Below are positions 17,322 to 63,799 of a stretch of 64,000 bases of DNA, in pieces. The first letter of the stretch is position 1; each line of letters opens with the position of its first letter. Source of the DNA: Massilia putida (GTDB lineage: Bacteria; Pseudomonadota; Gammaproteobacteria; Burkholderiales; Burkholderiaceae_D); the NCBI RefSeq assembly GCF_001941825.1, contig NZ_CP019037.1, forward strand, positions 1-64,000, read 5' to 3'. The notes under the pieces were generated by a model. That model ran no database searches and was not told the DNA's origin. It was given only the letters and a program-made list of their open reading frames with translations. Position numbers and translations under genes: made by a program.

Positions 17322-18152
17322 ATGAATCCCGTTATTATCGCTGTCGCGATCACCGGCTCGGTACCGCGCAAAAAAGATAATCCGGCGGTGCCGGTAACCG
17401 TTAGCGAGCAAATCGAGTCGACCCATGAGGCTTATGAGGCGGGCGCCAGCCTGGTGCACCTCCACGTGCGTAATCCGGACGAGAGCTCGTCATCCGATCC
17501 GGCACTGTTTGAAAGTGTTCTCGCCGGCATACGCAGACATTGTCCTGGCATGATCGTACAATTTTCGACGGGAGGCCGCGGTCGCGACCAGGCGTCCCGC
17601 GGCGGCGCTTTGCACCATAAGCCGGATATGGCGTCACTGGCCACCGGCAGCGTCAACTTCCCATCCATCATCTACGAAAACGCTCCAGCGCTGGTGGATC
17701 AGTTGGCACTCAGCATGAAAGAACATTGCATTTTGCCCGAGATCGAAATATTCGACCTTTCTCACATTTACGGCATGCGCAGGCTAATGGATGCGGGATT
17801 GATCAACGACAGGCCGCACGTCCAGTTCGTCATGGGCATCAAGAATGCGTTACCGGTCGAAGAGTATCTGCTCGATGTCCTGCTCTCGGTTCTACAACGT
17901 GTCGCGCCGAACGCCACGTGGACCGCTGCCGGCATCGGGCGCCATCAAAGCGTGGTCATTGACTGGGTACTCAGGCGTAAAGGCGATGCGGTTCGCACCG
18001 GACTGGAAGACAATATCCGTATCGACCGCGAGCGCCTTGCCACCAGCAACGCAGAACTCGTGCGAATCGCAGTCGATCTGTGTACACGGCACGGGGCCCG
18101 TCCAGCGACCCCGGCAGAAGCACGTGCCACACTGGGACTCGCGGCAGGTTAA
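17322..18152 (+). CDS. BKACE family beta-keto acid cleavage enzyme, copy 1
   Basis: 276 residues of the DUF849/Kce family, which cleaves a beta-keto acid with acetyl-CoA to give acetoacetate and a new CoA ester. The zinc-binding motif is VHLHVRNP (His-x-His, about residues 46-48), with IVQFSTGGRG, EIEIFDLSH, QFVMGIKNAL and the conserved glutamate in RTGLEDNI. It is preceded by AAGGAGACAAC. It follows the orphan binding protein, so the two may handle the same acid. The substrate side chain is not predictable by eye. Confidence 0.88.
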   Translation: MNPVIIAVAITGSVPRKKDNPAVPVTVSEQIESTHEAYEAGASLVHLHVRNPDESSSSDPALFESVLAGIRRHCPGMIVQFSTGGRGRDQASRGGALHHKPDMASLATGSVNFPSIIYENAPALVDQLALSMKEHCILPEIEIFDLSHIYGMRRLMDAGLINDRPHVQFVMGIKNALPVEEYLLDVLLSVLQRVAPNATWTAAGIGRHQSVVIDWVLRRKGDAVRTGLEDNIRIDRERLATSNAELVRIAVDLCTRHGARPATPAEARATLGLAAG

Positions 18153-18389
18153 TGTGACGACCGCGGGGCGGTACATTGGTCCAATGCTGAGTGAGAAACA
18201 CCCAGGAGCTCGACTCTGGTCGAACCCAAGGTGCTGCGCCGCCCGCTGCAGAAACCCCTGCGACGCGGACGTCACCATGTCGCGTCCTAGATGCAAGATT
18301 CACGCATTTCTGCCAGATACGTGCGTTCGGAAGGCGAAACTGCTAGTATTTACATCCGCTCCAATTATTTCCGTCAAATTCAGACTGTC

Positions 18390-26034: not shown

Positions 26035-26937
26035 ATGGCAACTCGAAAAATCATCGTCACCGTGGCCCCGACGGGTGGCATGGTCTCCAAGGCGCAGAGT
26101 CCGCATCTGCCGACGCAACCGGCGGAGATCGCGGAAGACACTTATCGCTGCTACAACGCCGGCGCAAGCGTGGTCGCGGTCCACGCGCGCCGCCCCGACG
26201 GCGAAGCGACGTGCAACCCGGCCATCTATCGCGATATCAACGAACGTATCCGCGCCAAGTGCGACATCGTGATCAATAACTCGACCGGCGGCGGCATCAA
26301 CGGCGACATGATCCGGGAGATGGATAACGGGTTCTGGGAAATCATGTGGGAAGAGCGCATCAAGGGCATGGAGGCCGGCGCCGAGATGTGTACGCTCGAT
26401 GCGCAGACCGTGTGCGCCAGCTTCGGTGGCAAGGAAATTCTCGTTCCGACGTCGCCGAATCGCACCAGGCAGCTGGCCGAGATGATGCGTGAACGCGGCA
26501 TCAAGCCTGAATGGGAGGTGTTCAGCGTCGAGAACATCCTCCAGGACGTGAATACGCTGATCGCGGCCGGCGGCTACGACGACGCGCCCCATTTCATCAA
26601 CATCGTACTGGGCGCCGACCGCGGTTTCCAGGGCGCCATGCCATATACGCCGAAGATCCTGCAGTTCTTCGTCGAGCACCTGCCGAAGAACTGCGTGTTC
26701 AATGTCAGCGCGATCGGGCCGGCGCAATTGCCGGCGACGACGCACGCGTTGCTGCTGGGTGGCCATGCGCGCGTCGGCCTCGAGGACAACCTGTACTTCA
26801 GCGCCGGCCAGCTGGCCACCAACGTGCAGCTGGTGGAGCGCATGGTACGCATCGTGCGCGAACTCGGTTTCGAAGTCGCGACGCCGAGCGAGGCGCGCGA
26901 GATCATGGGCCTGCGCCCGCTGCACGCCGCCAGGTGA
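26035..26937 (+). CDS. BKACE family beta-keto acid cleavage enzyme, copy 2
   Basis: 300 residues of the DUF849 family with RBS CAGGAGAACGC. It keeps the TIM-barrel markers [38 protein letters not shown] and [10 protein letters not shown] with the conserved glutamate. The usual HxH zinc motif is changed: the sequence reads [10 protein letters not shown], so the first histidine is alanine. It may use another ligand or a different mechanism. It heads the gentisate/CoA operon, and the next gene starts 14 bp later. A free beta-keto acid plus acetyl-CoA is the family reaction. Confidence 0.88.
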
Positions 26938-26951
26938 ACCGGGAGCCTATC

Positions 26952-29030
26952 GTGAATGCCTGCGAATTCGAAGTACTGCGGCGCCGGAACCTCGAGCGCT
27001 TGTTCCATCCGCGCAGCATCGCCGTGGTGGGCGCGTCGACCGACGCCTCCAAGGCGGGGTCCCAGGCCCTGCTGTCTCTGAAAGGCTTTCCGGGGCGACT
27101 GCTGGCGGTCAATCCGAAAGCGGACGAGATCATGGGCGTGAAATGCTACCCGAGCGTGGCGGCATTGCCCGAGGGTGTCGACCTGGCCGTGCTGGCGATC
27201 CCTGCGGAGCACTGCATCGCGGCGGCCGAGCAGGCGGCGCAACGGGGTGTCGGGGGCATCTTCATCATTTCCGGCGGGTTCGGCGAAACCGGCGGGGCCG
27301 GGAAGGTATTGCAGGACCGGCTGGCGGCGGCGTGTCGCCGCACCGGCATGCGCCTGCTCGGACCCAACACCTCCGGTTTCATCAACACCCACGCCGAATG
27401 CGTGGCCAGTTTCGTGCCCGGCGTCGACCGGTTGCGCAAGGGATCCGTCGCCGTCATCGCGCAGTCGGGCGGCGTCAATCTCACAATCAGTTTTCTGCTC
27501 GACCGCCTGGACCAGGGCGTCGCCCTCGCGGCAGGCTTGGGCAACGCGGTGGACGTGACGGCGGCCGACCTGCTGCCGATCCTCGCGGCCGATCCGAATG
27601 TCAGCGCCATCGCGCTGCATCTCGAGGGCGTGCCGGATGGCCGCAAGTTGTATGACGCACTGCGTGCCGTCACGCCGGTCAAGCCCGTGGTGGTGCTGGC
27701 CGCGGGCCGCGCCGACATCGGCGAGTTTGCCGTATCGCATACGGGAAATCTGATGGGGTCCCATCAACGTACCGTCAGCGCACTGGCACAGGCCGGCGCG
27801 GTGATCGTGGACAGCACGGAAGACCTCGCGCAGGCCGCGACGCTGCTGGGGCAGGGACGCTTGCCGGCATTGCGCGATCCCGGCGTGGGCCTCGTGACCG
27901 GACAAGCCGGTCCCGGCCTGCTGATCGTGGATGGCCTCAAGAGCGCCGGCTTGCGCGTACCGGAACTCGATGGCGCCACGCAGGAGGTGATCCAGCAGCA
28001 CCTGCCGCCAATGACCTTCATCAAGAATCCGGTAGACACCGGCCGACCGGGCGCGGGCTTCGCGCATGTGGTGGACGCCGTGGCGGCTGCACCCGAAGTG
28101 GACGTGGTCCTGGTCTATGCGCTCAGCGAAGCGGCGGTGCTGGATCCCGCCCGGGCGCTGGCCGCCGCGGCAGGCCGTGGCAAGCCATTGGTGTTCGGCA
28201 CCCTTGGGCTGCAACAGGACCTGGCGCCCGCGCTGCACGACCTGCGCGGGGCCGCGATACCGGCGGTTCTCGGCCCCGAGCGGCTGGTGCTGGCCGCGAC
28301 GGCGCTGGCGGCGGACGCACGCGGCCGCTGGCTGGGCACGCAGCGAGCGGAGACGACGGTGTCCCGCAGCCAGGTGCCGCTGCAGGGGCCGTATGACGAA
28401 CACAAGGCCAAGGCCTTGTTGGCCGAGTATGGCGTGCGCAGTCCGCAGCGGACGCTGTGCCACGGCCGCGCCGAAGCACTGGCCGCGTTCCAGCGCAGCG
28501 CGGGCGCGGTCGTCGTCAAGATCGTCGCGGACGACGTACCGCACAAGACGGAAGCGGGTGGCGTCCACCTGAACATCCGCACGCCTGGCGAGATGGAAGC
28601 CGCTCTGGATGCCATCGCCCGTATTCCTACCGGCGATCCCGGCAAGGTCCTGGTCGAGGAAATGGCGCCGGCAGGCGTGGAACTGATCATCGGCGCCGTA
28701 CGCGATCCGTCGTGGGGCGTGACGGTGGTGGTCGGCCTGGGCGGCGTGCTGGCCGAGGCGCTGTCGGACAGCAGCGTGCGTCTTGCGCCGCTGGCCGATG
28801 CCGACATCGACGACATGCTGAACCAACTGCGCGGCAGACAGCTGCTGGATGGCTTCCGTCACCTGCCGGTATGCGACCGCACTGCCATCGTCGAGGTCGT
28901 GCAGGCCGTGGCGCGCCTGATGCAGGAACACGCCGACATCGCGGAACTCGAGATCAACCCGCTGCGCGTCAATGCGCAAGGTGCATTGGCGCTGGATGCG
29001 CTGGTCGTCTTAGAAAAGGATGCAGCATGA
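26952..29030 (+). CDS. NDP-forming acyl-CoA synthetase (acetate-CoA ligase ADP-forming family)
   Basis: 692 residues from GTG at 26952, which follows GGGAG by six bases; a GTG at 26934 is less well placed. The order is a CoA-binding Rossmann domain ([20 protein letters not shown]), a succinyl-CoA-synthetase-like domain with the phospho-histidine region [10 protein letters not shown], and an ATP-grasp domain ([33 protein letters not shown]). All parts are in one chain. It would activate an organic acid to its CoA ester with ATP. It is coupled to gentisate dioxygenase by ATGA. Confidence 0.9.
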
Positions 29031-30076
29031 GCGAACAGCTGGGACGGGTGGAAGACTTGCCCAAGGATTATTACGACGGCCTCGTGTCGCGCAACACCCT
29101 GCCGCTCTGGCCGTCGCTGCGCGCGATGCTCCCGCACGGCATGCCGGGCCGGCGCACGCAGCCGGTGATGTGGCGCTACCAGGACGTGCGGCCGGACCTG
29201 ATCAAGGCCGGCGAGCTGACGCCGATCGAGAAGGCGGAGCGGCGCGTGCTGGTGCTGTGCAACCCTGGCCTCGGCCTGCAGAACATGCAGGCCACGGCCA
29301 GCATCTATATCGGCCTGCAGCTGATCCAGCCGGGCGAGACGGCACCGAATCACCGCCATACGCCGTCTGCCGTCCGCTTCGTGATCGAAGGCGAGGGCGG
29401 TTTCACGGTGGTCAACGGCGAAAAGCTGCCGATGGAAAAGGGCGACCTCATCCTGACGCCGCCCGGGCTGTGGCACGAACACGGGCACGAAGGGCGGGGC
29501 CCGGTGATCTGGCTCGATGCACTGGACCTGCCGCTGATCTATGGCATCGACGCCTCCTACTCCACGGAAGCCCAGCGCGGCCAGCCGCTGCGCAAGGCCA
29601 CGGGCGACTGCAACCTGCGCTATGCCCAGGGCGGCGTGGTTCCCTACGCTGCCCTGGACGACAAGCCCGAGGCGTTCCCGCTGCTGCGTTTCCCCTGGAA
29701 GGACGTGCGCGCCGCGCTGCAGTCCCTGGCCCGGGTGACGCCCGCCGCGGAGCCGGTCCAGCTGGCCTACGTCAATCCGCACACGGGCCGCGAGTGCCTG
29801 GCGACACTGGGATTCTCGGCGATCCTGCTGCGACCCGGCGAATCGCTGCGCATGAAGCGGCGCTCGGCTTCGGCCGTGCTGCACGTGGTCGAAGGCGCCG
29901 GGCAAGCGCAGGTGGATGGTGCCACCCACGATTTCGGGGCGGCCGACACGCTGGCCCTGCCAACCCACGCGCAGGTCACGCTGACCAATGGTTCGGCGAC
30001 CGGGGAGACGTACCTGTTCATGGTCGACGACGCCCCACTGCATCGCAAACTTGGTATTTACGAGGTATTCGAATGA
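29027..30076 (+). CDS. Gentisate 1,2-dioxygenase
   Basis: 349 residues, a bicupin. The iron site of the first cupin is in [18 protein letters not shown] (about 106-122), with the third histidine near [12 protein letters not shown]. The C-terminal cupin keeps the fold ([13 protein letters not shown]) but lacks a full histidine set, as usual in this family. It cleaves gentisate between the carboxyl and hydroxyl carbons to maleylpyruvate using Fe(II) and O2. It overlaps the synthetase before it and fumarylpyruvate hydrolase after it. Confidence 0.94.
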
Positions 30077-30768
30077 CAACTTATCTGTTCCCGCCCGCAC
30101 CGGTCAACGCCATTCCCGTCCAGGGCGATACCGCGACGTTTCCGATCCGGCGTATTTTTTGCGTGGGACGCAACTACGAAGCCCATGCACGGGAAATGGG
30201 CGTGGCGCCGGATCGCGAGGCGCCGTTCTACTTCACGAAGTCGCCCGACACCTATGTGCCGTCGGGGGCCACGATTCCCTATCCGCCCGGCACCAGCAAC
30301 TATCACTACGAGATGGAATTGGTGGCGGTAATCGGCAAGCCCGGCTTTCGAATTCCGCGCGACCAAGCCCTGCAACACGTGTATGGCTATGCATGCGGGC
30401 TCGACATGACGCGCCGCGATCTTCAAATCGCGGCGCGGGAGCAGCGCCGGCCGTGGGACTTGGGCAAGGATTTCGAGCAATCGGCCGTGATCTCCCCCAT
30501 CGTGCCGGCCGCGCGTATCGGCCACCCGGCCTCCGGGCGCATCGTGCTGGACGTGAATGGCGTCGAGAAACAGGCATCCGACCTGTCCCTGCTGATCCAC
30601 GGTATTCCCGACCTGATCGCGCACCTGTCCGGGTACTACCACCTCCAGCCGGGCGACGTGATCTTCACCGGCACCCCGGAGGGCGTGGGCGCGGTGCAGC
30701 CGGGCGACCGGATTGGCGGCAGCATCGACGGGGTCGGCAGCATCGCGCTGACGATCGGAGAGGCTTGA
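30073..30768 (+). CDS. Fumarylpyruvate hydrolase (FAH family)
   Basis: 231 residues. FAH-fold markers are [29 protein letters not shown] with the metal-binding glutamates, [10 protein letters not shown] and the signature [15 protein letters not shown]. Length and sequence fit the single-domain fumarylpyruvate hydrolases of gentisate pathways, giving fumarate and pyruvate. It overlaps gentisate dioxygenase by ATGA. The isomerase of the middle step is on the other strand at 23587-24246. Confidence 0.93.
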
Positions 30769-30798: not shown

Positions 30799-31806
30799 AT
30801 GCAGACAACGACAATCAACGGTGCCTACGCAGCACCCGCCGACGTCCGGGTCGTCGGCGTGGTCGGCACGGGGTCGGTCGGCGCCAGCTGGACCGCCCTG
30901 TTCCTGGCGTACGGCATTCGGGTGCAGGCCTTCGATCCGGCGCCGCTGGCCGAGGAGCGCGCGCGCGCGTTCGTCGGCGCCGCGTGGCCCGCGCTGATGG
31001 CACGGATGGGAACGCCGGACCGGGCCATTCCCCAGGACCAACTGCGGTTCTGCGCATCCATCGCCGAGGCGGCGGACGGTGCCCAGGCCATGCAGGAGAA
31101 CGGGCCCGAGCGTCCCGAACTGAAAGCGGAGATCATCGCGGCCATCGACGCCGCGGCCGGGCCGGACCAGGTGATCATGTCCAGCACCGGCGGCATCATC
31201 CCGTCGGTCCTGCAGAAATCCTGCCGGAACCCGCGGCGTTTCGTCGTCCTCCACCCCCTCAATCCGGCGCACTTGCTGCCGCTGGTCGAGGTGGTGGGCG
31301 GAGAAGACACCGCCCCCGAGACGATGGACTGGGCGATGACGTTCGCGCGCCGCATCGGCAAACGACCGATCCGCCTCAAGCGGGAAGCGACCGGACACAT
31401 GACCAACCGGCTGCAGTTCGCGCTGCTGCGCGAAGCGGTGCACTGTGTCGTCCAGGACATCGCGAGTCCCAGCGACATCGACGAGGCCGTGCGTTACGGG
31501 CTCGCACCGCGCTGGGCGCTGATGGGCGGATTGCTGACGATGCACCTGGCCGGCGGCCAGGGCGGGATGCGCGGCATCCTCGACCATGCAGGCGAGGCGA
31601 TCGAAGGCTGGTGGGATTCGCTGGGCAAGCCGCACCTGGACCAGGCGACCCGCGGCCAGCTGCTGGCGGCGGCGTTGGAAGTCGCCCAGGGACACAGCAT
31701 CGACGACTGGGTGGCGTGGCGCGACCGCAACCTGGCGCGCATCGTCCAGCTGATCGAACAGGACAACGGGCCGGAGGCCCCATTGACGACGGAGAACGCA
31801 GCATGA
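30799..31806 (+). CDS. 3-Hydroxyacyl-CoA dehydrogenase family, carnitine 3-dehydrogenase-like
   Basis: 335 residues. Of two adjacent ATGs, the second (30799) is better spaced from GAGGAG. The NAD site is GVVGTGSVGASWTALFLAYG, then SSTGGIIPSVLQ and the catalytic HPLNPAHLLPLVEV. The length and the short C-terminal domain (RYGLAPRWALMGGLLTMHLA) resemble L-carnitine dehydrogenase and lambda-crystallin more than FadB. Such enzymes can oxidise free 3-hydroxy acids to the beta-keto acids used by BKACE enzymes; a BKACE gene heads this operon. ATGA overlap leads to the crotonase. Confidence 0.85.
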   Translation: MQTTTINGAYAAPADVRVVGVVGTGSVGASWTALFLAYGIRVQAFDPAPLAEERARAFVGAAWPALMARMGTPDRAIPQDQLRFCASIAEAADGAQAMQENGPERPELKAEIIAAIDAAAGPDQVIMSSTGGIIPSVLQKSCRNPRRFVVLHPLNPAHLLPLVEVVGGEDTAPETMDWAMTFARRIGKRPIRLKREATGHMTNRLQFALLREAVHCVVQDIASPSDIDEAVRYGLAPRWALMGGLLTMHLAGGQGGMRGILDHAGEAIEGWWDSLGKPHLDQATRGQLLAAALEVAQGHSIDDWVAWRDRNLARIVQLIEQDNGPEAPLTTENAA

Positions 31807-35382: not shown

Positions 35383-35396
35383 GAAAGGCAGCAGAC

Positions 35397-36146: not shown

Positions 36147-37100
<954 letters not shown>

Positions 37101-40725: not shown

Positions 40726-40793
40726 ATACAAAATCCGCGGTGCGTCAAGACCAACCGGCCCTGGCATCGCTATTCCAGTCAGCAGGAGACAAG

Positions 40794-41588: not shown

Positions 41589-41630
41589 ACCAAAAAATGC
41601 TGTGCAGCGCGAAATCGCACATGCTATTAT

Positions 41631-41654
41631 AAAACTGACGGTTTAACAGTTTTT
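41631..41654. promoter_or_regulatory. TetR-type operator, copy B
   Basis: AAAACTGA (41631-41638), spacer CGGTTTA, then ACAGTTTTT (41646-41654): a nearly symmetrical CTGA-N7-TCAG element with A- and T-rich flanks. It is 35 bp before the DUF35 gene and so probably controls the operon that ends at 46822. Confidence 0.7.
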
Positions 41655-41688
41655 GGAATTTTCCCCGTGATTCGAGCCGAGTGACCCT

Positions 41689-43222: not shown

Positions 43223-43238
43223 CTATGGAGACATCATC

Positions 43239-44459: not shown

Positions 44460-44468
44460 GGTCATAGA

Positions 44469-45674: not shown

Positions 45675-45676
45675 GC

Positions 45677-48175: not shown

Positions 48176-48272
48176 GAATCCGGCGACCAGGCGGGACGAC
48201 ATGAAGCAAGTTGAGCCGACAGGCCGGCAACGGCATCCGTCAGTCACTACTATAAGAACAGGAGACGCAGCA

Positions 48273-49925: not shown

Positions 49926-49994
49926 TCTGGAACAGCAGCGGGCCGCCGGCGCCGTGGCGATCCGGCGGTTGAAGTCATAACAGGAGACATGAAA

Positions 49995-51380
49995 ATGCAA
50001 AAGACGATTCACATCATCGCGGCTGCGGCCGCGGGCCTGGCACTGGCGCTTCCGGCACTGGCCGAGGTCACGGCGGAGGAGGCCAGGCAGCTCGGCACGA
50101 CCCTGACGCCCATGGGCGCCGAGCGCGCCGGAAACAAGGCCGGCACCATTCCCGAGTGGACGGGCGGGCTGTGCAAGGCGCCGGCCGGGTATAGCCCGAA
50201 GCAGGGGGCGCAGGCAGGCGGGGCGCCGTACATCGACCCCGTCGCCGCCGACAAGCCGCTGTTCCGCATCACGCGCGCTAACCTCGCGCAATATGCCGAC
50301 AAGATCGACGACGGCACGAAGGAGCTGTTCCGGCGCTATCCGACGTTCGCCATCGATATCTATCCGACGCGCCGCCTGGCGTGCTACGCGGACTGGGTGT
50401 ACGAGAACACCGCCAAGCGCATCAACCAACCGAAACTGGTCGGCAACGCGCCGGGCATCACGGGCGCGCATGCGCAAGTGCCGTTCCCGATTCCCAAGAG
50501 CGGTGCGGAAGTCATGTGGAACGTGATCCTCAAATTCGAGCCGGTGCGCTACCGCTTCAAGCTCGATGCCGGCCTGATGGATACCTCAGGAACGTTCACC
50601 CGCGCATCGTTCCAGGTTGCCGACACCGAAAACCTGTACTGGGACAATACCGTGACGTCGCTGCCGGAAGACAAGCCCTACCGCAGGCAAGTGGCCTCGA
50701 ACCTGGAGCCGGCGTCGCAGGCGGGCCTGGCCACCTTGCGCGTCGCCTTCCTGCGCCAGGATCAGCATGACGACATGGCATGGAGCTATGTGCCCGGCCA
50801 GCGCCGGGTGCGCCTTGCGCCCGAGTTCAAGTACGACACCGTCTCGACCACGTCCGGTGGCCTGTTGATTTTCGATGAAATCGGCGGCTTCGACGGCAAG
50901 CTCGACAAGTACAACTGGAAGCTCCTCGGCAAGCGCGAGATGTACATCCCTGCCAATGACTACCGGTTCCTCGCCGCGACGACCGAGGAAACGATGAAGA
51001 AGGACCACGCCAACCCGGACCTGTTCCGCTGGGAGCTGCGCCGGGTGTGGGTAGTCGAAGGGTCGCTGAAGGAGGGCGAGCGCCATGTCCAGCAGAAGAA
51101 GGTGTTCCTGGTCGACGAAGACAGCTGGGTATCGCCGGTCTATTACAGCGTCGATCACTCCGGCAAGATTCACCACTTGATGCACCTGCCGCCGATCCAG
51201 GAATACGACAAGCCCGGTACGCGTACCGGCGCATTCGTGCTGTACGACATGCCGCGCAACCTGTATGGCTTCCAGACCAAGCCGCAAGGGCGTCCCGACC
51301 AGTTCGGCTACATGAAAGTCTCGGCTTACCCGAGCAATTTCTTCACGCCGGACTCGCTGGCTGGACGCGGGGTACGCTGA
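49995..51380 (+). CDS. DUF1329 family periplasmic/outer-membrane lipid-handling protein
   Basis: 461 residues. The second of two close ATGs (49995) has the better distance from AGGAG. A signal peptide (IIAAAAAGLALALPALAEV) is followed by AGTIPEWTGGL, a DUF1329 hallmark, and a LolA/LolB-like beta fold (RRVRLAPEFKYDTVSTTSGG, FDEIGGFDGKLDKYNWKLLG). It is the constant partner of DUF1302. The pair may form a carrier path between outer membrane and the RND exporter encoded downstream. Its biochemical function is not established. Confidence 0.85.
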   Translation: MQKTIHIIAAAAAGLALALPALAEVTAEEARQLGTTLTPMGAERAGNKAGTIPEWTGGLCKAPAGYSPKQGAQAGGAPYIDPVAADKPLFRITRANLAQYADKIDDGTKELFRRYPTFAIDIYPTRRLACYADWVYENTAKRINQPKLVGNAPGITGAHAQVPFPIPKSGAEVMWNVILKFEPVRYRFKLDAGLMDTSGTFTRASFQVADTENLYWDNTVTSLPEDKPYRRQVASNLEPASQAGLATLRVAFLRQDQHDDMAWSYVPGQRRVRLAPEFKYDTVSTTSGGLLIFDEIGGFDGKLDKYNWKLLGKREMYIPANDYRFLAATTEETMKKDHANPDLFRWELRRVWVVEGSLKEGERHVQQKKVFLVDEDSWVSPVYYSVDHSGKIHHLMHLPPIQEYDKPGTRTGAFVLYDMPRNLYGFQTKPQGRPDQFGYMKVSAYPSNFFTPDSLAGRGVR

Positions 51381-51381
51381 C

Positions 51382-52431
51382 ATGCGGGCCGTCCACACGC
51401 TGTTGCTGGCGGCCCTCGCGCTGCCGGCCGGTGCAGGCACGCAGCCGACCCGCGATCCGCTCGATGCGCCGGCGGCGCCGACCCGGCTGGCCGCCTCGAC
51501 CCAGCTGTCCGGTGTGACGCAGGCAGGCAACCGGCTCGTCGCGGTCGGCATCCGGGGCCTGATCGTCACGTCGGACGACGGCGGCGCAACGTGGTCGCAA
51601 CGCCCGGCGCCGGTGTCGTCGGATCTGTTGGCCGTGCATTTCCCGACCCCGGCCCTGGGGTGGGCCGTCGGTCACGACGGCGTGGTGCTGCACAGCGCGG
51701 ATGGCGGCGCCAGCTGGGTGAAGCAGTTCGATGGCCGGCAGGCCGCCCAGCAATTGACGGCCCATTTCAAGCGCCTGGCGGATGGCGGCGACAAGGTCGC
51801 CGCGCGCCTGCTCGAGGATACCCGCCTGAATTACGAGAACGGTCCCGAGCAGGCTTTGCTGGATGTCTGGTTCGAGGACGCGCAGCATGGGTTCGTGTGC
51901 GGGTCGTTCGGCACGCTGTTCGCCACGAGCGACGGCGGCAAGAGCTGGCAATCATGGGTGGAGAAGGTCGAGGCGGACAACGCGCTGCACCTGAATGCGA
52001 TCCGCGGCGTGGGCGATGACATCTATATCGCCTCCGAGAAGGGCATCGTGTTCAGGCTCGACCGCGCGCGCCAGCGCTTTGTCCGTACCGACACCGGTTA
52101 TGCCGGCAGTTTTTTCACGCTGGCCGGCAATGGCGGGATCGTGCTGGCCGGCGGCCTGCGCGGTACCGCCTACCGCTCGGCGGATCAGGGGAAAACCTGG
52201 CAAAAGCTCGATACCGGTACCAATGCTTCGATCACGGGCGCCGCGGCGCCACGCGACCGGCTCCTGCTCGTCAGCCAGAACGGCAGCCTGCTGGTGAGTG
52301 ACGACGCCGGTGCCTCGTTCCGCCGGTTGCGCGTGCCGCGTCCGAGCGTCTTGTCCGGCATCGTGCAGAGCGCGCCGGGAAAGGCGGTCGTGGTGGGGGC
52401 CAATGGCGTGCAGCAGGTCGCACTGCAGTAG
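51382..52431 (+). CDS. YCF48-like/BNR-repeat beta-propeller protein
   Basis: 349 residues with a signal peptide (LLLAALALPAGAGT). Asp-box/BNR repeats recur along the chain: TSDDGGATWSQ, HSADGGASWVKQ, TSDGGKSWQSW, RSADQGKTWQKL and VSDDAGASFRRL. This is the fold of the photosystem II assembly factor YCF48, but in heterotrophs it accompanies DUF1302/DUF1329/RND clusters. It is exported and probably an assembly or scaffold protein of that system. It starts two bases after the DUF1329 stop. Confidence 0.85.
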   Translation: MRAVHTLLLAALALPAGAGTQPTRDPLDAPAAPTRLAASTQLSGVTQAGNRLVAVGIRGLIVTSDDGGATWSQRPAPVSSDLLAVHFPTPALGWAVGHDGVVLHSADGGASWVKQFDGRQAAQQLTAHFKRLADGGDKVAARLLEDTRLNYENGPEQALLDVWFEDAQHGFVCGSFGTLFATSDGGKSWQSWVEKVEADNALHLNAIRGVGDDIYIASEKGIVFRLDRARQRFVRTDTGYAGSFFTLAGNGGIVLAGGLRGTAYRSADQGKTWQKLDTGTNASITGAAAPRDRLLLVSQNGSLLVSDDAGASFRRLRVPRPSVLSGIVQSAPGKAVVVGANGVQQVALQ

Positions 52432-52485
52432 CGCCGCCTGCGCCGCGCGTTTTTACCCAAGCTGTCCTAGTCACGGAGTTCAGGC

Positions 52486-54936
52486 ATGTCATCTTCACAC
52501 CAGGCAATCGAACTGCCTGTCATCACCGACCCGGCCAAATTCGATACCCGTAGCGGGTCATGGCTGGAACGGGTCATCTTCAATCACCGGCCGCTCATGC
52601 TCGTCATCTGCGCGGTCGTGACACTGTTCCTCGGCTGGCAGGCGACGAAGCTGCCTGTCAACGCGAGCTTCGAAAAGATGATCCCGAGTTCGCATCCCTA
52701 CATCAAGAATTATTTCGCCAGCCGCCAGTCGTTGCGCGGCATGGGCAACGCGATCCGGATCTCGGTCGAGAACACCCGGGGCGACATCTATGATCGCGAG
52801 TATCTGCTCGCGCTGCAGAAGATCAACGACAAGGTCTACCTGATGCCCGGTGTCGATCGGGCATGGATGCGGGGGCTGTGGACGACCAGCCTGCGCTGGA
52901 CCGAGATCACCGAGGAGGGATACCGCGGCGGTCCGGTGATGCCCGACCGCTGGGACGGCAGCCCCGAATCGATGCGCCAGCTGCAGACCAATATTGCGCG
53001 GGCGGGAATCATCGGCAATTTTGTGGCCGACAACCTGAAGTCGACGATGATCGTGGTGCCGCTGGTGGAAAAGAACCCCGAGACCGGCGAGCAACTCGAT
53101 TACGCCGAGTTCTCGCGCCGCCTGGAAAGTGAAGTGCGCTCGTTCGACGGCCCGCATGTGAAGGTCCATATCGTCGGCTTCGCCAAGCTCGTCGGGGACC
53201 TGATCGACGGCCTGTACGACGTGATGAAATATTTCGCGTTATCGGTCTTGATCGCGGCCGCCTGCGTCTACACGTACACCCGCTGCCTGCGCAGCACGTT
53301 GCTCCTGGTCGGGTCGGCCATGCTCGGGGTCGTCTGGTTGCTGGGCCTCCTGCACCTGCTCGGTTATGTGCTGGATCCGTATTCGATCCTGGTGCCGTTC
53401 CTGATCTTCGCCATCGGCCTGTCGCACGGCGCGCAGAAGATGAACGGGATCATGCAGGACGTCGGGCGCGGCACGCACAAGTATGTCGCGGCGCGCTACA
53501 CGTTCCGCCGCCTGTTCCTGGCCGGCCTGACGGCCCTGCTGACCAATATCGTCGGCTTCGCGGTCCTCGTCATCATCGACATTCCCGCGATCCGCGACAT
53601 GGCCATCACGACCAGTGTCGGCGTGACGGTGCTGATCTTTACCAAGCTGGTCCTGATTCCGGTGCTGTTGTCCTACACCGGCGTGAACGCCGCAGCGGCT
53701 CGGCGCAGCGTAAGAATGGAACAGGCGGTACCGAGCGGCCTGGCAGGCATGGTGCGGCGCGGCCTGATCGCGCTGTGCCAGCGGCGGTATGCGACCGTCG
53801 CCATCCTCGGCGCGGTCGCGCTGGCGGCGGTAGCGATGGTGGTGCGCCGGGATATCCAGATCGGCGACTTGAATCCGGGGGCGCCCGAACTGCGGGCCGA
53901 CTCCCGCTACAACCGGGATAACGCGTTCATTACCGCGAATTATGCGCTGTCCACCGACCAGTTCGTCGTCGTGATCAAGACCCCACCCACCGAGTGTTTC
54001 GGCTACGACAACCTGGTCGAGTCGGATCGCCTGGGCGCAGCGCTGCGCCAACTCGACGGCGTGCAGACCACCCTGTCGCTGGCGGATGGCATCCGGCGTG
54101 GCACGTCGGGCCTGTTCGAAGGCAATCCGAAGTGGCAGGCGCTGTCGCGCAACACGACCAACCGCTCGCAGGCCTTCGCGATTTTCCAGGGCGACCGGCC
54201 GGAGCTGGCCGACCGCACCTGCGCATACACGCCATTGGTGGCCTACCTCAAGGACCACAAGGCGGCAACGTTGACGCGGGTGGTGGACGCGGTGGAGCAA
54301 TTCGCGGCACAGCATAATGGTCCGCGGCGCGAATTCCAGCTCGCGGCCGGGAATGCCGGTATCGAGGCGGTCACCAATATCGTCGTCAAGAAAAGCTTCT
54401 GGACCATGCATTTCGTGCTGTATGGCGCCGTCATCCTGCTCTGCTTCGTGACGTTCCGCAGCTGGCGCGCCACGGTCGTTGCCGTCATCCCGCTGATGTT
54501 GACGTCGGTGATGTGCGAAGCCCTGATGGTATGGCTGAACATCGGTATCAAGGTGGCCGTGCTGCCGGTCATCGCGGTCGGCGTCGGCGTCGGCGTCGAC
54601 TATGCGCTGTACCTGCTGAGCGTCCAGCTGTCCCTGCAACGGCAGGGCGCGACACTGGCCGAAGCCTATGCGCGCTCGTTGGACTTTACCGGCAAGATCG
54701 TCGGCCTGGTCGGGGTGACGATGGCCGCCGGCGTGATCACCTGGGTCTGGTCTCCCATCAAGTTCCAGGCCGATATGGGCATCCTGCTGACGTTTATGTT
54801 CCTGTGGAACATGATCGGTGCCTTGATCCTGATTCCGGCGCTGTCACGGTTCCTGCTGTGCACCCGCGCCGACAAGGGCGGCAAGCCGGTTGCGCATGCG
54901 GCCGCCGGCCTGCCGGTCGCGGCCGCGAAACGCTGA
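52486..54936 (+). CDS. RND superfamily (MMPL/HpnN-like) transporter
   Basis: 816 residues with two repeated halves of six helices: a first helix in PLMLVICAVVTLFLGWQATK, a large periplasmic loop, then helices in YFALSVLIAAACVYTYTRC, PFLIFAIGLSHGAQKMNG and FLAGLTALLTNIVGFAVLVI. The second half repeats this (AVLPVIAVGVGVGVDYALYL). SSD-type or MMPL transporters move lipids, hopanoids or other hydrophobic molecules. It ends the DUF1302-DUF1329-YCF48 set and supplies the inner-membrane part. Confidence 0.9.
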   Translation: MSSSHQAIELPVITDPAKFDTRSGSWLERVIFNHRPLMLVICAVVTLFLGWQATKLPVNASFEKMIPSSHPYIKNYFASRQSLRGMGNAIRISVENTRGDIYDREYLLALQKINDKVYLMPGVDRAWMRGLWTTSLRWTEITEEGYRGGPVMPDRWDGSPESMRQLQTNIARAGIIGNFVADNLKSTMIVVPLVEKNPETGEQLDYAEFSRRLESEVRSFDGPHVKVHIVGFAKLVGDLIDGLYDVMKYFALSVLIAAACVYTYTRCLRSTLLLVGSAMLGVVWLLGLLHLLGYVLDPYSILVPFLIFAIGLSHGAQKMNGIMQDVGRGTHKYVAARYTFRRLFLAGLTALLTNIVGFAVLVIIDIPAIRDMAITTSVGVTVLIFTKLVLIPVLLSYTGVNAAAARRSVRMEQAVPSGLAGMVRRGLIALCQRRYATVAILGAVALAAVAMVVRRDIQIGDLNPGAPELRADSRYNRDNAFITANYALSTDQFVVVIKTPPTECFGYDNLVESDRLGAALRQLDGVQTTLSLADGIRRGTSGLFEGNPKWQALSRNTTNRSQAFAIFQGDRPELADRTCAYTPLVAYLKDHKAATLTRVVDAVEQFAAQHNGPRREFQLAAGNAGIEAVTNIVVKKSFWTMHFVLYGAVILLCFVTFRSWRATVVAVIPLMLTSVMCEALMVWLNIGIKVAVLPVIAVGVGVGVDYALYLLSVQLSLQRQGATLAEAYARSLDFTGKIVGLVGVTMAAGVITWVWSPIKFQADMGILLTFMFLWNMIGALILIPALSRFLLCTRADKGGKPVAHAAAGLPVAAAKR

Positions 54937-56484: not shown

Positions 56485-57390
56485 TCAGCCCGCCGCGCGG
56501 GCAGGTGCGGCCGGACGTCCGAGCGCGGCCCAGGCGGCGGCGCTCTGGGCGACCGGCCGGCCCACTTCCCCGGCCAGCGCCACCGCCGCGGCCACCGTTT
56601 CGCTGTTGGTCAGCGAGGTGCGGCCGGCGGCGTCTTCGATTCCCACCCGCAGATGGCCGCCCCGTTCGACCGCATAGCGCGCCAGCGGCGTATCGAGGAG
56701 CGCGTCGCCCAGCACGCCGACGCTCCACGCGAGGCCGGTCCCTTCCAGCATCGACAGGTAAGCGTCCAGCGCCGGCTTGTTGGGGGGAAGGCCGAAGTTC
56801 AGCGCGCGCTTGCCGATCTTGACGAGGCTGTACTCGCCGCCGAAATAGAGCTTGATGACGGAACCCGCGGGCAGCCGGCCCTTGGCGTGCTGCGCCAGTG
56901 CCCAGCGCAGGTTGAACGGCTCGGATACGCCGACCGCCACCGGAAGATTCAGCTCGTGCGCCAGGCCCAGCGTATGGTTGGCGTCGTCGAACGAAAAGCG
57001 GGTCTTGTTGGCGCCGACCGGCAGGCCGTCGTCGTCCAGCTGGCCGGAAAAGGCGCCGCCCGGATCGACCGGCAGCAGATCGAGTACACCGGCCAATGCC
57101 AGCGGACGCACATGCCCCAGCCAGTCCTGCACCGCCGCGCCGCTCAGGAAATCCGGGTACAGCAAGGCCCCTGGATGACTGGCCTTGACGGCCTTGCCCA
57201 TGGCGAGCATCTCGTCGGTGGCGGCGCCGGCGTCGAAGCGCATGTCGTGGTGATGGTGGATGATCGCGGCGCCCGCCGCGAGGCAGGCCTGCGCCTCGCT
57301 GACCATGCCGTGCTGGTCCCAGACGGGGGCGGCGGAACGGTAGGGACAGATCGCGGCTTCGATGACCAGGGGCGTGTCGGATGGCTTCAT
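56485..57390 (-). CDS. BKACE family beta-keto acid cleavage enzyme, copy 3
   Basis: 301 residues from ATG at 57390, DUF849 family. The zinc motif region is AAIIHHHHDMRF; IKLYFGGEYS and GGHLRVGIEDAAG with the conserved glutamate follow. It is closely related to copy 4 at 62867: both share VIEAA, SEA-CLAAGAAIIH, and LLYPDF/LYYPDY segments. It lies 26 bp after the MFS transporter on the same strand, so uptake and cleavage of the same acid are plausible. Confidence 0.88.
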   Translation of the reverse strand: MKPSDTPLVIEAAICPYRSAAPVWDQHGMVSEAQACLAAGAAIIHHHHDMRFDAGAATDEMLAMGKAVKASHPGALLYPDFLSGAAVQDWLGHVRPLALAGVLDLLPVDPGGAFSGQLDDDGLPVGANKTRFSFDDANHTLGLAHELNLPVAVGVSEPFNLRWALAQHAKGRLPAGSVIKLYFGGEYSLVKIGKRALNFGLPPNKPALDAYLSMLEGTGLAWSVGVLGDALLDTPLARYAVERGGHLRVGIEDAAGRTSLTNSETVAAAVALAGEVGRPVAQSAAAWAALGRPAAPARAAG

Positions 57391-59665: not shown

Positions 59666-59667
59666 GG

Positions 59668-61302
59668 TCAACGCTTCTTCAGGACGATTGTGGATTTTTC
59701 GCGGTCCCAGGTGGACGGCGTCACGCCTTCGTCGCGGAGTTCGAACTTCTGCACCTTGCCGACCGGGCTGCGCGGGAATTCCTTGCGAAACTCGATATAG
59801 CGCGGCACCGCGTAGTACGGCAGCTGGTCGATCGCCCAGCGGCACAGTTCTTCTTCCGCAAGCACGGCGCCGTCCTTGAGGATGACGGTGACCTTCAGCT
59901 CATCCTCGCCCAGCTTGTCGAGTACCGCGTGGGCGGCGACATCTTCGACCGCGTCGTGGGCGCGGAAGGCATTTTCCACCTCGAAGCTGGAAATGTTCTC
60001 GCCGCGGCGGCGCAGGTAATCCTTCTTGCGGTCGACGAAGAAGAAGTAGCCGTCGGCATCGATCTTGCCGATGTCGCCCGTATGGAACCACAGGTTCTTC
60101 ATCACCTTCAGCGTCTCTTCTGGGCGTTTCCAGTAGCCGTCGAACATGATGCCGGGCATGCGCGGGCGGACGATCAGTTCCCCCGGCGTGCCGGGCGGAA
60201 GCTCGTTGTCGTTGTCGTCGACGATGCGGATGTCGAACCATTCGTTGCGCATGCCCGAACTCCCCGGCTTGGCGGGCGTCCCGTACGGCAGCACCGTCAT
60301 CAGCGAGCACTCGGTCAGGCCGAAACAGCCGGATGCGGTGTAGCGCAATCCGAATCGTTCCTTCCACTGTGCCTGGATCGCCGGCGGGAAGGGCGCGCCC
60401 CACGCTGCGTTCAACTGGCCGTAGCAGCGCTTCATCGCGTCGTTGTCCGGGGCATTGGCCAGCATGGGGAACATCGCACCGAGAATCGAGACTTCGGTGG
60501 CCTTGGTGCGCTCGATCTCGGGCCAGAAATTCGAGACCGAAAAACGTGGATACAGCGAGACGCGTGCGCCGACCATCATGTTCGCCATGACCGTCGAGCA
60601 GACCGCGTTCATATGGAACAACGGGAGCGGTGTCCACGTATGCGTGGAGGCGTCGCGGTTGGTCATGCGCAGCATCTGCTGGCAGAATACGTAGCAATAG
60701 TTATGGCTGATCATGCAGCCCTTGGACGGACCGGTCGTGCCGCCGGTGTAGACCAGCATCGCCAGGTCGCCCGGCTTGACGTTGACGTCGGGGTCGCTGG
60801 CGTCGTCGCTGAAGATCCCGGACCACGGCACGACCGCGCCCCCGAAGCGGGGCAGGGCGGGGATGGCGCCGCGCACTACCAGCGTGCGCACGTCCGGCAG
60901 GCGCGCGGCGACGGCGGCCACGCGCTCGGCGTAATCCGGGTCGGCGATGACCAGTGCGGCGCCGGCGTCGCCCACCTGGTGGCGCAGGAACTCGCCCTTC
61001 AGTGCCGTGTTGACGGGTACGCTGATCGCGCCCAGCTTGTTAATCGCCAGCCAGATGAAGATCGCATCCGGACAGGTGTCGAGCAGCGTGACCACGGTAT
61101 CGCCTTGCCGCACGCCCAGCGCGGCGAGACCGTTGGCCAGGCGGCAGGCATGGTTGTCTACGTCGGCGAACGAGTATTCCGTTCCCAGGAATTCCAGGAA
61201 CATGCGGTTGCCAAAATCCTGCACGGCCTGGCGCAATACGCCGTTGACGGTGCCCTGTTTGGTGCTGGTCCAGGCTTGCGTGATTTCCGTTGTGCTGCTC
61301 AT
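59668..61302 (-). CDS. AMP-forming acyl-CoA synthetase, crotonobetaine/carnitine-CoA ligase-like
   Basis: 544 residues of the ANL superfamily: LVYTGGTTGPSKGCMISHNY, GCFGLTECSLM, FHTGDIGKIDADGYFFFVD and the lysine near PVGKVQKFEL. The RRRGENISSFEVENAF segment resembles CaiC-type ligases. It would activate a carboxylic acid with ATP and CoA. It lies 25 bp downstream of MFS paralogue 2 on the same strand, followed by the hydrolase: transporter, ligase, hydrolase in one operon. Confidence 0.88.
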   Translation of the reverse strand: MSSTTEITQAWTSTKQGTVNGVLRQAVQDFGNRMFLEFLGTEYSFADVDNHACRLANGLAALGVRQGDTVVTLLDTCPDAIFIWLAINKLGAISVPVNTALKGEFLRHQVGDAGAALVIADPDYAERVAAVAARLPDVRTLVVRGAIPALPRFGGAVVPWSGIFSDDASDPDVNVKPGDLAMLVYTGGTTGPSKGCMISHNYCYVFCQQMLRMTNRDASTHTWTPLPLFHMNAVCSTVMANMMVGARVSLYPRFSVSNFWPEIERTKATEVSILGAMFPMLANAPDNDAMKRCYGQLNAAWGAPFPPAIQAQWKERFGLRYTASGCFGLTECSLMTVLPYGTPAKPGSSGMRNEWFDIRIVDDNDNELPPGTPGELIVRPRMPGIMFDGYWKRPEETLKVMKNLWFHTGDIGKIDADGYFFFVDRKKDYLRRRGENISSFEVENAFRAHDAVEDVAAHAVLDKLGEDELKVTVILKDGAVLAEEELCRWAIDQLPYYAVPRYIEFRKEFPRSPVGKVQKFELRDEGVTPSTWDREKSTIVLKKR

Positions 61303-62746: not shown

Positions 62747-62866
62747 GGCCGCCACCCGCTGGACGACTTGCCGGTCGCGCACTCGCGGGCTACAGTGAAC
62801 GGAGAACTAACGATGATTTGGTTTTAACTTCGTGATATCGAACCCGGGAACATGAAAGGACCGACG

Positions 62867-63799
62867 ATGAGCAGCATTCGACAGGACAGTGAGGCGCCCG
62901 TGGTGATCGAGGCAGCGGTGACACCGCTGCGCAAGGGTGCGCCGCTGCAACCCGCGCAAGCGACCGTCAGCGAGGCGACGGAGTGCCTCGCCGCCGGCGC
63001 CGCGATCATCCACTACCACCACGATTTCAGGCTCGAACGTAGCGCCGCGACCGGCCAGATCATCGATATCGGCAAGGCGATTCTGGCCGACTTCCCCCAT
63101 GCGCTTTACTACCCCGACTACATCGCGGGACGCGACGAAGACCGCGCCCTGGGGCGCCGCTACCAGCCCGATGCGCTGCTGCGACCCATGCACGACGCCG
63201 GCGCGCTGCGCATGTTCGCTCTCGATCCGGGCTTCACGCTGTTCGGGCAGCTCGACGACAAGGGGTTGCCGTCGAATTCCGTCACGGGCGGGCAGACCTA
63301 TGCCGAGGCGCACGCGATGGTCGAATATGCCCGCGAAGTCGATTGTCCGATCTCGATCGGCATCTACGAGCCCGGCAATCTGCGCTGGGTGGTGGCCTAT
63401 GCCAAGGCTGGCATGTTCCCTTCCGGGTCCCTGATCAAGATCTACTTCGGCGGCGAGTACACGATGGGCCAGGATCGCGTGCCCGGCGTGAATTTCGGCC
63501 TCGCTCCCACCAGGGCGAACCTGGACGTCTATCTCGGGATGATGCAGGGGATCGACCTGCCGTGGCAGGTGAGCGTGCAGGGCGGCGTGCTGCTCGATAC
63601 CGAGGTGGCCCGCCACGCCCTGGAGCTGGGTGGCCATCTGCGTGTGGGGGTGGAAGACACCGCCGGGGGGACGCCGATGAGCAATCGCGAGACGGTGGAA
63701 GCGGCCGTGGCGCTGGCACGGCAGGTCGGCCGTCCCGTGGCGACCGGCGAGGCTGCCCTTGCAGCACTGGCCAGGCCCCCGTTCGCGTTGGCAGCCTGA
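62867..63799 (+). CDS. BKACE family beta-keto acid cleavage enzyme, copy 4
   Basis: 310 residues from ATG at 62867, which follows AAAGGACCGACG; an in-frame ATG at 62852 is less well placed. DUF849 markers are AAIIHYHHDFRL at the zinc site, LIKIYFGGEYTMG, and GGHLRVGVEDTAGG with the conserved glutamate. It is the close paralogue of copy 3. A perfect intrinsic terminator follows 34 bp after the stop, so it is a single-gene unit facing the MFS-ligase-hydrolase operon. Confidence 0.9.
   Translation: MSSIRQDSEAPVVIEAAVTPLRKGAPLQPAQATVSEATECLAAGAAIIHYHHDFRLERSAATGQIIDIGKAILADFPHALYYPDYIAGRDEDRALGRRYQPDALLRPMHDAGALRMFALDPGFTLFGQLDDKGLPSNSVTGGQTYAEAHAMVEYAREVDCPISIGIYEPGNLRWVVAYAKAGMFPSGSLIKIYFGGEYTMGQDRVPGVNFGLAPTRANLDVYLGMMQGIDLPWQVSVQGGVLLDTEVARHALELGGHLRVGVEDTAGGTPMSNRETVEAAVALARQVGRPVATGEAALAALARPPFALAA

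What the first reader, a model, noticed from the sequence alone, without database searches (positions are those of the whole stretch)
17322..63799. Four BKACE genes and no thiolase: a possible thiolase-free beta-oxidation system
The window holds three CoA synthetases, five acyl-CoA dehydrogenases, a dedicated EtfBA, hydratases, two 3-hydroxyacyl dehydrogenase types and TesB, yet I see no thiolase motif in any frame. The FadB-like gene lacks FadA and the DUF35 gene lacks its usual thiolase. Four DUF849 genes (17322, 26035, 56485, 62867), whose family splits beta-keto acids with acetyl-CoA, are spread through the same clusters. TesB could release beta-keto acids from CoA and BKACE could then cleave them to acetoacetate and a shortened CoA ester.
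Basis: partly seen in the sequence, partly recalled or inferred. Interest (0 to 1): 0.75.

Follow-up and report, generated by a model that had tools for sequence, protein, structure and literature searches.

The report
Beta-oxidation operon ending in BKACE
One of the four enzymes sits in a conserved gene set that probably shortens acids by a beta-oxidation-like route ending in a BKACE instead of a thiolase, but the wider gene island around it has thiolases just outside the window, so the island is not thiolase-free.

Summary
In detail: four BKACE (DUF849) genes and no thiolase in the window. "Thiolase-free system" fails for the whole: the window cuts a conserved ~68 kb island that runs on to about 92 kb and has two SCP2-type thiolases and a BktB; in Herbaspirillum a BktB lies inside the same operon. 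The BKACEs are not one system: 17322 is a 3-oxoadipate type outside the island.

The core idea survives for one operon. BKACE 26035 lies with CoA ligase, acyl-CoA dehydrogenase, a DmdD-like crotonase and a dehydrogenase nearest to free-acid enzymes. In 13 of 80 related loci this BKACE sits with feruloyl-CoA synthase, crotonase and that dehydrogenase, without thiolase or amidohydrolase. Among 49 synthase loci chosen without regard to BKACE, the two with BKACE are the two with the dehydrogenase. A 62% relative lies in an acetophenone-carboxylase-like cluster.

Best reading: a BKACE-terminated beta-oxidation round on a free beta-keto acid, probably an aroylacetate. This clade has lost one metal histidine (86 of 86), so an assay is needed.

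The parts
26035..26937 (+). BKACE (DUF849), AxH subclade; proposed cleavage of a free beta-keto acid with acetyl-CoA
   Evidence: PF05853 276 bits; Kce His46 position is Ala, seven other active-site positions kept; operon conserved
26952..29030 (+). ADP-forming acyl-CoA synthetase (start uncertain, 26934 to 27027)
   Evidence: orthologs in L054, L087, L089
29027..30076 (+). gentisate 1,2-dioxygenase-like ring-cleavage enzyme
   Evidence: TIGR02272 269 bits, below cut-off 442; PDB 2d40 239 bits; 81% to Herbaspirillum
30073..30768 (+). fumarylacetoacetate hydrolase family, probably the step after ring cleavage (inference)
   Evidence: PF01557
30796..31806 (+). 3HCDH-fold dehydrogenase of the lambda-crystallin / L-carnitine dehydrogenase kind (free-acid substrates, recalled)
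   Evidence: PDB lambda-crystallin E 2e-42 against 8e-21 for the best CoA 3HCDH; NCBIfam L-carnitine dehydrogenase 250 bits, below cut-off 414
31803..32612 (+). crotonase near DmdD and crotonases beside feruloyl-CoA synthase; hydratase, possibly also CoA-ester hydrolase
   Evidence: PDB 3hin 292 bits, DmdD 182, next 112; both catalytic Glu kept; tree
32609..34240 (+). AMP-forming acyl-CoA ligase
   Evidence: PF00501; 11 of 11 operon loci
34237..35382 (+). acyl-CoA dehydrogenase (start uncertain)
   Evidence: PF00441/02770/02771; 86-87% to Herbaspirillum and Azoarcus
35379..37100 (+). EtfB (35379-36146) and EtfA (36147-37100)
   Evidence: PF01012, PF00766
37113..38012 (+). TesB-type thioesterase
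   Evidence: PF02551/PF20789; TIGR00189 189 bits, below cut-off 293
38623..40803 (-). FadH/OYE-type flavoenzyme, part of the conserved island
   Evidence: NCBIfam 391 bits, below cut-off; 70/66% in Herbaspirillum/Azoarcus
40707..46822 (+). SDR, DUF35 (41689-42111), four acyl-CoA dehydrogenases; second conserved block of the island
48201..54936 (+). DUF1302, DUF1329, YCF48-like, MMPL: envelope / uptake block for a hydrophobic substrate (inference)
56485..57390 (-). divergent BKACE (start uncertain)
   Evidence: PF05853 72.6 bits; His pair and ED kept
59668..61302 (-). AMP-forming acyl-CoA ligase near two MFS genes and two divergent BKACEs
62852..63799 (+). divergent BKACE, conserved in the island of Herbaspirillum (68%)
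   Evidence: PF05853 93.5 bits
17322..18152 (+). 3-oxoadipate-type BKACE, outside the island
   Evidence: NF053568 460 bits against cut-off 350

Best explanation
BKACE 26035 is the terminal carbon-carbon cleaving enzyme of a beta-oxidation-like operon. A carboxylic acid, probably with an aromatic ring and a three-carbon side chain, is activated by the ligase (32609), desaturated by the acyl-CoA dehydrogenase (34.2 kb, electrons to EtfBA) and hydrated by the DmdD-like crotonase (31803). The CoA ester is then hydrolysed, by that crotonase itself or by a thioesterase such as TesB. The free beta-hydroxy acid is oxidised by the lambda-crystallin-type dehydrogenase (30796) to a beta-keto acid. BKACE and acetyl-CoA turn this into the shortened acyl-CoA plus acetoacetate. 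The ring then goes through the gentisate-dioxygenase-like enzyme and the FAA hydrolase; acetoacetate is activated and split by a thiolase elsewhere (BktB at C2:90929 or others). Shown: gene content, order, conservation, subfamily placement. Inferred: every substrate and reaction of this operon, the hydrolysis step above all.
For: Genes from BKACE to TesB abut, overlap or lie within 30 bases, leaving no room for a thiolase. BKACE, the dehydrogenase and the ligase recur in 11 of 11 ligase-type loci, the crotonase in 10, the acyl-CoA dehydrogenase family in 9. The same BKACE and dehydrogenase occur with feruloyl-CoA synthase and crotonase in 13 of 80 named loci. Survey not chosen by BKACE: of 49 synthase loci 14 have an amidohydrolase, 12 a thiolase (3 both), 2 BKACE, 24 none; the dehydrogenase (100 bits or more) is in exactly the two BKACE loci, and neither has amidohydrolase or thiolase. 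Amidohydrolase or thiolase: 0 of 6 BKACE clusters (four named genera, plus the two survey loci counted as one each) against 16 of 20 synthase-plus-crotonase loci, Fisher p 9e-4; against 23 of all 47 other synthase loci, p 0.03. Dehydrogenase nearest to free-acid enzymes. DmdD hydrolyses 3-hydroxybutyryl-CoA, kcat 13 per s (passages, PMC3660561). In Sphingobium a 62% identical BKACE sits with a thioesterase, a biotin carboxylase set and a HAD hydrolase; a carboxylase and a phosphatase make a hydroxyphenyl-beta-ketopropionate in the Hpe pathway (passages, PMC9618137).
Against: The clade lacks one of the metal-binding histidines of Kce (Ala in 86 of 86). Herbaspirillum keeps BktB in the same operon, so thiolysis is possible there. 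Two of the 80 loci (L095, L099) have a strong amidohydrolase match beside this BKACE, without the synthase, and L108 has a weak one and a thiolase. The gentisate gene is in only 4 of 11 loci. Ordinary hydratases also have both Glu residues, so hydrolysis by the crotonase is not shown; the crotonases of the Pandoraea-type loci fall outside the clade of the operon crotonase and DmdD. Ten of the 13 synthase loci are Pandoraea, and those 13 were found through BKACE; independent events are few. 24 of 49 survey loci showed none of the three enzymes, several of them cut by contig ends. DmdD did not hydrolyse several saturated CoA esters.
Confidence: 0.52

Rival explanations
1. One reading: the dehydrogenase acts on the CoA ester, TesB or another thioesterase hydrolyses the beta-ketoacyl-CoA, and BKACE cleaves the resulting beta-keto acid.
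For: A thioesterase of some kind is near the BKACE in 6 of 11 ligase-type loci: TesB in the window, L087 and L089, small 4HBT-type ones in L051, L092 and, at 45 bits, L088.
Against: The dehydrogenase is nearest to free-acid enzymes. Eight thioesterase queries found nothing clear in the 15 synthase-BKACE loci (one match of 32 bits in L231), and a ninth nothing in the 13 named ones. A thioesterase may act after BKACE, on the aroyl-CoA.
Confidence: 0.18
2. Ordinary beta-oxidation closed by a thiolase elsewhere (BktB C2:90929, 100728 or 236693, or the SCP2 thiolases); BKACE serves another substrate or only a side reaction.
For: The island has three thiolases outside the window; BktB lies inside the Herbaspirillum operon and is 75-76% identical to three copies on C2.
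Against: The Azoarcus island has no classical thiolase in the 110 kb read; BKACE and its dehydrogenase recur together in clusters without thiolase.
Confidence: 0.17
3. BKACE acts first: a beta-hydroxy acid taken up from outside is oxidised and cleaved, and ligase, acyl-CoA dehydrogenase and crotonase work on the product or on a second substrate.
For: 27 of 80 loci have a major-facilitator gene beside this BKACE, 22 of the 27 with the dehydrogenase, and none with ligase or acyl-CoA dehydrogenase on the same strand.
Against: A ligase would hardly be needed after BKACE has made an acyl-CoA; synthase, crotonase, dehydrogenase and BKACE together fit hydroxycinnamates.
Confidence: 0.07
4. The AxH clade is not a beta-keto acid cleaving enzyme but, for example, a hydrolase of the same family, as cis-epoxysuccinate hydrolases are.
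For: One metal ligand lost in 86 of 86; cis-epoxysuccinate hydrolases are relatives.
Against: His48, Ser82, Thr106, Glu143, Arg226, Glu230 and Asp231 kept in 86 of 86; contexts predict a beta-keto acid.
Confidence: 0.06

Closest known systems
Hydroxycinnamate beta-oxidative deacetylation (Agrobacterium fabrum Atu1415-1417 and 1421; Rhodococcus CouL/CouO; PipUVWX)
   Same: Ligase, crotonase, dehydrogenase, then loss of two carbons; the operon crotonase falls in one clade with crotonases beside feruloyl-CoA synthase. PMC7797058 passages call Atu1421 a beta-keto-thiolase; PMC9618137 passages call CouO-like HpeF a beta-ketoacyl-CoA hydrolase
   Different: There an SDR and an amidohydrolase-family enzyme (family of Atu1421 and CouO recalled; gene sets seen in L151, L152); here a lambda-crystallin-type dehydrogenase and a BKACE, plus an acyl-CoA dehydrogenase
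VceA/VceB and the acetovanillone (Acv/Hpe) pathway
   Same: Hydroxyphenyl-beta-ketopropionate turned into the benzoate (passages, PMC9618137); a 62% identical BKACE with a thioesterase sits in a similar cluster in Sphingobium
   Different: The keto acid comes from carboxylation of an acetophenone. That VceA is a DUF849 protein is recalled, not checked; no counterpart of the Hpe kinase was identified in the Sphingobium cluster
L-carnitine degradation (dehydrogenase, thioesterase, BKACE; recalled)
   Same: 3HCDH-fold free-acid dehydrogenase paired with BKACE and a thioesterase
   Different: No ligase, acyl-CoA dehydrogenase or crotonase; 30796 is below the carnitine dehydrogenase cut-offs
DMSP demethiolation DmdB-DmdC-DmdD
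   Same: Ligase, acyl-CoA dehydrogenase and a crotonase that hydrates and hydrolyses (passages, PMC3660561; DmdB and DmdC recalled)
   Different: No BKACE; the product falls apart to acetaldehyde, CO2 and methanethiol
Deoxyribonate oxidation in Pseudomonas simiae
   Same: Free-acid dehydrogenase then BKACE; an acetyltransferase gene important too (passages, PMC6365646)
   Different: Sugar acid, SDR dehydrogenase, no CoA-bound upstream steps. In Burkholderia phytofirmans the acetyltransferase was instead detrimental on deoxyribonate, unexplained (same passages)

Membership tests
BKACE (PF05853), gene 26035 | match to the family above cut-off | tested here: met
   276 bits, cut-off 24.8
BKACE (PF05853), gene 26035 | His-x-His metal pair of Kce (46, 48; roles recalled) | tested here: not met
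   Ala at 46, His at 48; the same in 86 of 86 relatives (80, 4 plasmids, 2 survey loci)
BKACE (PF05853), gene 26035 | other active-site positions (S82, T106, E143, R226, E230, D231; roles recalled) | tested here: met
   86 of 86
BKACE (PF05853), gene 26035 | acetyl-CoA-dependent cleavage of a beta-keto acid | not testable with these tools
   needs an assay
BKACE (PF05853), gene 62852 | metal pair and other active-site positions | tested here: inconclusive
   His pair, R226, E230, D231 kept; aligned S82, T106, E143 are D, A, G, alignment weak
3-oxoadipate:acetyl-CoA acetyltransferase, gene 17322 | NCBIfam equivalog cut-off | tested here: met
   460 bits against 350
   island has thiolases at 78944, 85125, 90929; BktB inside the Herbaspirillum operon
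BKACE-terminated beta-oxidation module | BKACE with ligase, crotonase and dehydrogenase, no thiolase nearby | tested here: met
   window, L051 and 9 of 80 (ligase type; L113 without crotonase), 13 of 80 (synthase type); no thiolase in the fetched flanks (often 10 kb, some shorter); L089 has one when read further
CouO / Atu1421-type route | amidohydrolase of the L151/L152 kind in the cluster | tested here: not met
   0 of 13 synthase-BKACE loci and no C2 ORF at 100 bits; but 3 of the 80 loci, without synthase, have one
L-carnitine dehydrogenase, gene 30796 | NCBIfam cut-off | tested here: not met
   250 of 414 and 231 of 592 bits
DmdD, gene 31803 | both catalytic Glu | tested here: met
   alignments; shared with ordinary hydratases
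DmdD, gene 31803 | CoA-ester hydrolysis | not testable with these tools
   needs an assay

The most novel reading that the evidence does not exclude
A defined BKACE clade with an Ala-x-His metal motif has replaced both thiolase and the amidohydrolase-type cleaving enzyme in arylpropanoid beta-oxidation, together with a free-acid dehydrogenase and a hydrating and hydrolysing crotonase: the substrate is put on CoA, taken off CoA halfway, and put back on CoA by the carbon-carbon cleavage itself.
Probability: 0.3. Interest if true: 0.72.

Novelty: new variant of a known kind. Interest (0 to 1): 0.55.

Why it matters
It would add a further solution, beside thiolase and the amidohydrolase-type enzyme, for removing two carbons from aromatic side chains, and gives a probable role to a BKACE clade that databases name after lysine fermentation. 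It also makes a simple test possible: whether loss of one metal histidine is compatible with BKACE chemistry. The route could matter for lignin-derived acids, where free beta-keto acids occur as intermediates.

Tried and rejected
Rejected: steroid side-chain degradation as the identity of the island. DUF1302/DUF1329/MMPL, DUF35 and neighbouring acyl-CoA dehydrogenases suggested it, but the ring-cleavage gene is gentisate-like; no steroid marker search was run, so this is a judgement. Rejected: FadB 20604 and ECH 22760 as part of the system (no match of 40% or more in the stretches read of the two other island copies). Led nowhere: genome scan with the 62852 BKACE alone; near-DNA search of 24 kb in plasmids, whose 20 listed rows of 55 records matched only the etfBA stretch; the ligase in 399 genomes of the order at a strict cut-off, found only in its own genome; paper searches for 3-hydroxyphenylpropionate and salicylyl-CoA with gentisate (none). 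Not used: structure prediction.

Weak controls and faults: of six AMP-ligases found on C2 by two ligase queries, the two beside BKACEs have no thiolase within 10 kb and three of the other four do. The gene 56485 row was out of frame and is not used; searches give it in frame. One of nine sequences in my classical thiolase HMM was a 758-residue open frame that may be a wrong frame. The tree has long branches and warns of them. Which C2 BktB is the counterpart of the Herbaspirillum one is open: three are 75-76% identical.

Survey rows: of 52 synthase places 49 were fetched; two of the other three lie inside fetched loci (L196, L220), one fragment was not examined. One further survey locus (L223) has a 75-bit dehydrogenase match, under my threshold of 100. 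9 of the 80 loci are under 12 kb and more are cut on one side, so absence there is weak. L116 was read only 1.7 and 4.6 kb either side of BKACE. The 20 control loci of the Fisher test are the 21 survey loci with a crotonase match over 200 bits, less the BKACE one; the other BKACE survey locus (L231) has a crotonase match of only 85 bits. The two unnamed survey loci could belong to genera already counted.

Full report
The window is the first 64 kb of contig C2 (457 kb) of a 7.5 Mb genome in three contigs. All five BKACE genes found in the genome are on C2, four of them in the window. The window has no thiolase by two Pfam models and by two HMMs made from this genome's thiolases, while C2 has ten PF00108 places further on.

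The four BKACEs do not form one set. Gene 17322 scores 460 bits against the cut-off of 350 for 3-oxoadipate:acetyl-CoA acetyltransferase; such a role was suggested for a relative in Ralstonia eutropha H16 (passages, PMC6449761). Genes 56485, 62852 and C2:97230 are divergent, with 74-94 bits to the family; relatives of 62852 occur in Sphingomonas, Streptomyces, Pandoraea and Herbaspirillum. Gene 26035 is a third type.

Synteny shows that the window cuts an island. C2:24.2-92.1 kb has counterparts in Herbaspirillum autotrophicum (contig 1, about 155-216 kb) and in an Azoarcus metagenome-assembled genome (contig of 125 kb, about 1-90 kb, rearranged). Outside the window the island continues with a ligase (75776), SCP2-type thiolases (78944, 85125), hydratases, two Amidohydro_2 genes, ETF-QO (89214) and, next to it, a BktB (90929). 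In Herbaspirillum the matching operon reads EtfB-EtfA-BktB-TesB; that BktB scores 727 bits against a cut-off of 725 and is 75-76% identical to three on C2. The Azoarcus copy has no classical thiolase in the 110 kb read, only two SCP2-type ones; its EtfBA lies elsewhere in the island. So the island is not thiolase-free. Which SCP2 thiolase, if any, pairs with DUF35 was not tested.

The operon 26035-38574 is tight: the genes from BKACE to TesB abut, overlap or lie within 30 bases. It holds BKACE, ADP-forming CoA synthetase, gentisate-dioxygenase-like enzyme, FAA hydrolase, 3HCDH-fold dehydrogenase, crotonase, AMP-ligase, acyl-CoA dehydrogenase, EtfBA, TesB and glutathione peroxidase. A scan of one genome per species gave 352 relatives of this BKACE, of which the best 80 were kept. 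In 9 of these 80, plus a Variovorax plasmid and the window, it lies with the ligase and the same dehydrogenase, in all but one of these 11 also with the crotonase. None of the nine nor the plasmid has a thiolase in the fetched flanks, mostly about 10 kb a side and shorter in L092 and L116; L089 has BktB just beyond its flank. Thiolases are in 4 of the 80 loci.

Two placements bear on the mechanism. The dehydrogenase 30796 is nearest to lambda-crystallin and a pyridine-carboxylate dehydrogenase (E 2e-42, 1e-41), both free-acid enzymes by recalled knowledge, and only then to CoA-dependent ones (8e-21). The crotonase is nearest to 3hin and DmdD (292 and 182 bits, next 112). DmdD hydrates crotonyl-CoA and hydrolyses 3-hydroxybutyryl-CoA, though its authors leave open whether the latter is physiological (passages, PMC3660561). 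Two plasmid relatives next to feruloyl-CoA synthase and an amidohydrolase fall in one clade with it. That gene set resembles the hydroxycinnamate route of Agrobacterium fabrum (passages, PMC7797058), called beta-oxidation-like also for piperic acid (passages, PMC12753220).

This led to the main test. In 13 of the 80 loci (ten Pandoraea, one each of Derxia, Massilia and Paraburkholderia) feruloyl-CoA synthase, crotonase, dehydrogenase and BKACE are within the fetched stretch, with neither thiolase nor amidohydrolase. A survey chosen by the synthase, not by BKACE, found it in 41 of 399 genomes of the order. Of 49 loci read, 14 have the amidohydrolase, 12 a thiolase (3 of them both), 2 BKACE, and 24 none; the dehydrogenase at 100 bits is in the two BKACE loci and in no other. 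The SDR of the known route is in 12 of 49 and in neither BKACE locus. BKACE and its dehydrogenase thus seem to come as a pair in place of SDR and amidohydrolase or thiolase. The numbers are small, and several loci end at contig ends.

A third context points to the substrate. In Sphingobium yanoikuyae, with the same protein in S. bisphenolicum, a 62% identical BKACE lies after a thioesterase and before a Tm-1-like ATP-binding protein, a biotin carboxylase set and a HAD hydrolase. The acetovanillone pathway uses kinase, biotin carboxylase and phosphatase to make hydroxyphenyl-beta-ketopropionates, and in SYK-6 VceA and VceB turn such acids into hydroxybenzoates (passages, PMC9618137). That VceA is acetyl-CoA dependent and of the DUF849 family is recalled, not checked, and the Sphingobium cluster is called of this kind by resemblance only.

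A caution: in this clade the position of Kce His46 is Ala in 86 of 86 relatives and in the window, and the two Sphingomonad sequences read Ala-Leu-His; seven other active-site positions are kept in 86 of 86. Zinc is needed by one studied BKACE (passages, PMC11961710). Either the metal is held differently or the chemistry differs.

Who removes CoA is open. TesB or a small thioesterase is near BKACE in 6 of 11 ligase-type loci, but nine thioesterase queries found nothing clear in the 13 named synthase-type loci.

Even if the route is as proposed, it is not free of thiolases as a whole: acetoacetate must be activated and split. In Pseudomonas simiae an acetyl-CoA acetyltransferase gene was important together with BKACE (passages, PMC6365646). 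The ADP-forming synthetase of the operon could do the activation, or could save energy from an acyl-CoA; both are guesses. CoA-transferase (PF01144) genes are only on C3.

Literature: five searches of the held library joining BKACE or its other names with beta-oxidation, thiolase, thioesterase, acyl-CoA dehydrogenase or hydroxycinnamate listed no title or abstract that describes this pairing. Of the papers listed there I saw passages of PMC11961710, PMC6449761 and PMC6365646 only. Most subscription papers are not held.

Noticed in passing
C2:71798-74149 (outside the window, + strand): An acyl-CoA dehydrogenase followed by an APH-type kinase, a pair that by recall resembles LvaC/LvaA or ACAD10/11 and would suit 4-hydroxyacyl-CoA; conserved in both island copies.
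   Followed up: no
C2:78336-78902: A GTP cyclohydrolase I gene inside the catabolic island, 81-82% identical in both other copies.
   Followed up: no
C2:219371-223313: A FadB paralog lies directly beside an SCP2-type thiolase on the same strand, by recall an unusual partner for FadB.
   Followed up: partly
L047:11974-13707 (Rhodococcus rhodochrous GD02 plasmid): A short BKACE gene (175 codons) directly followed by an IS3 transposase in an acetovanillone-degrading strain; it looks truncated.
   Followed up: no
window 18291-20510: A PAS-GGDEF-EAL protein between the 3-oxoadipate-type BKACE and FadB.
   Followed up: no
L051, L054, L092, L100, L116: Four ligase-type operons (L054, L092, L100, L116) carry an extra small gene that I read as MaoC-like, and L051, L054, L092, L116 a flavin monooxygenase; the L051 one is nearest to salicylyl-CoA 5-hydroxylase, which hints at a salicylyl-CoA to gentisate branch.
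   Followed up: partly
C2:90929, 100728, 236693: Three BktB-like thiolases on one contig, all 75-76% to the one in the Herbaspirillum operon; the first two pass the NCBIfam BktB cut-off.
   Followed up: partly
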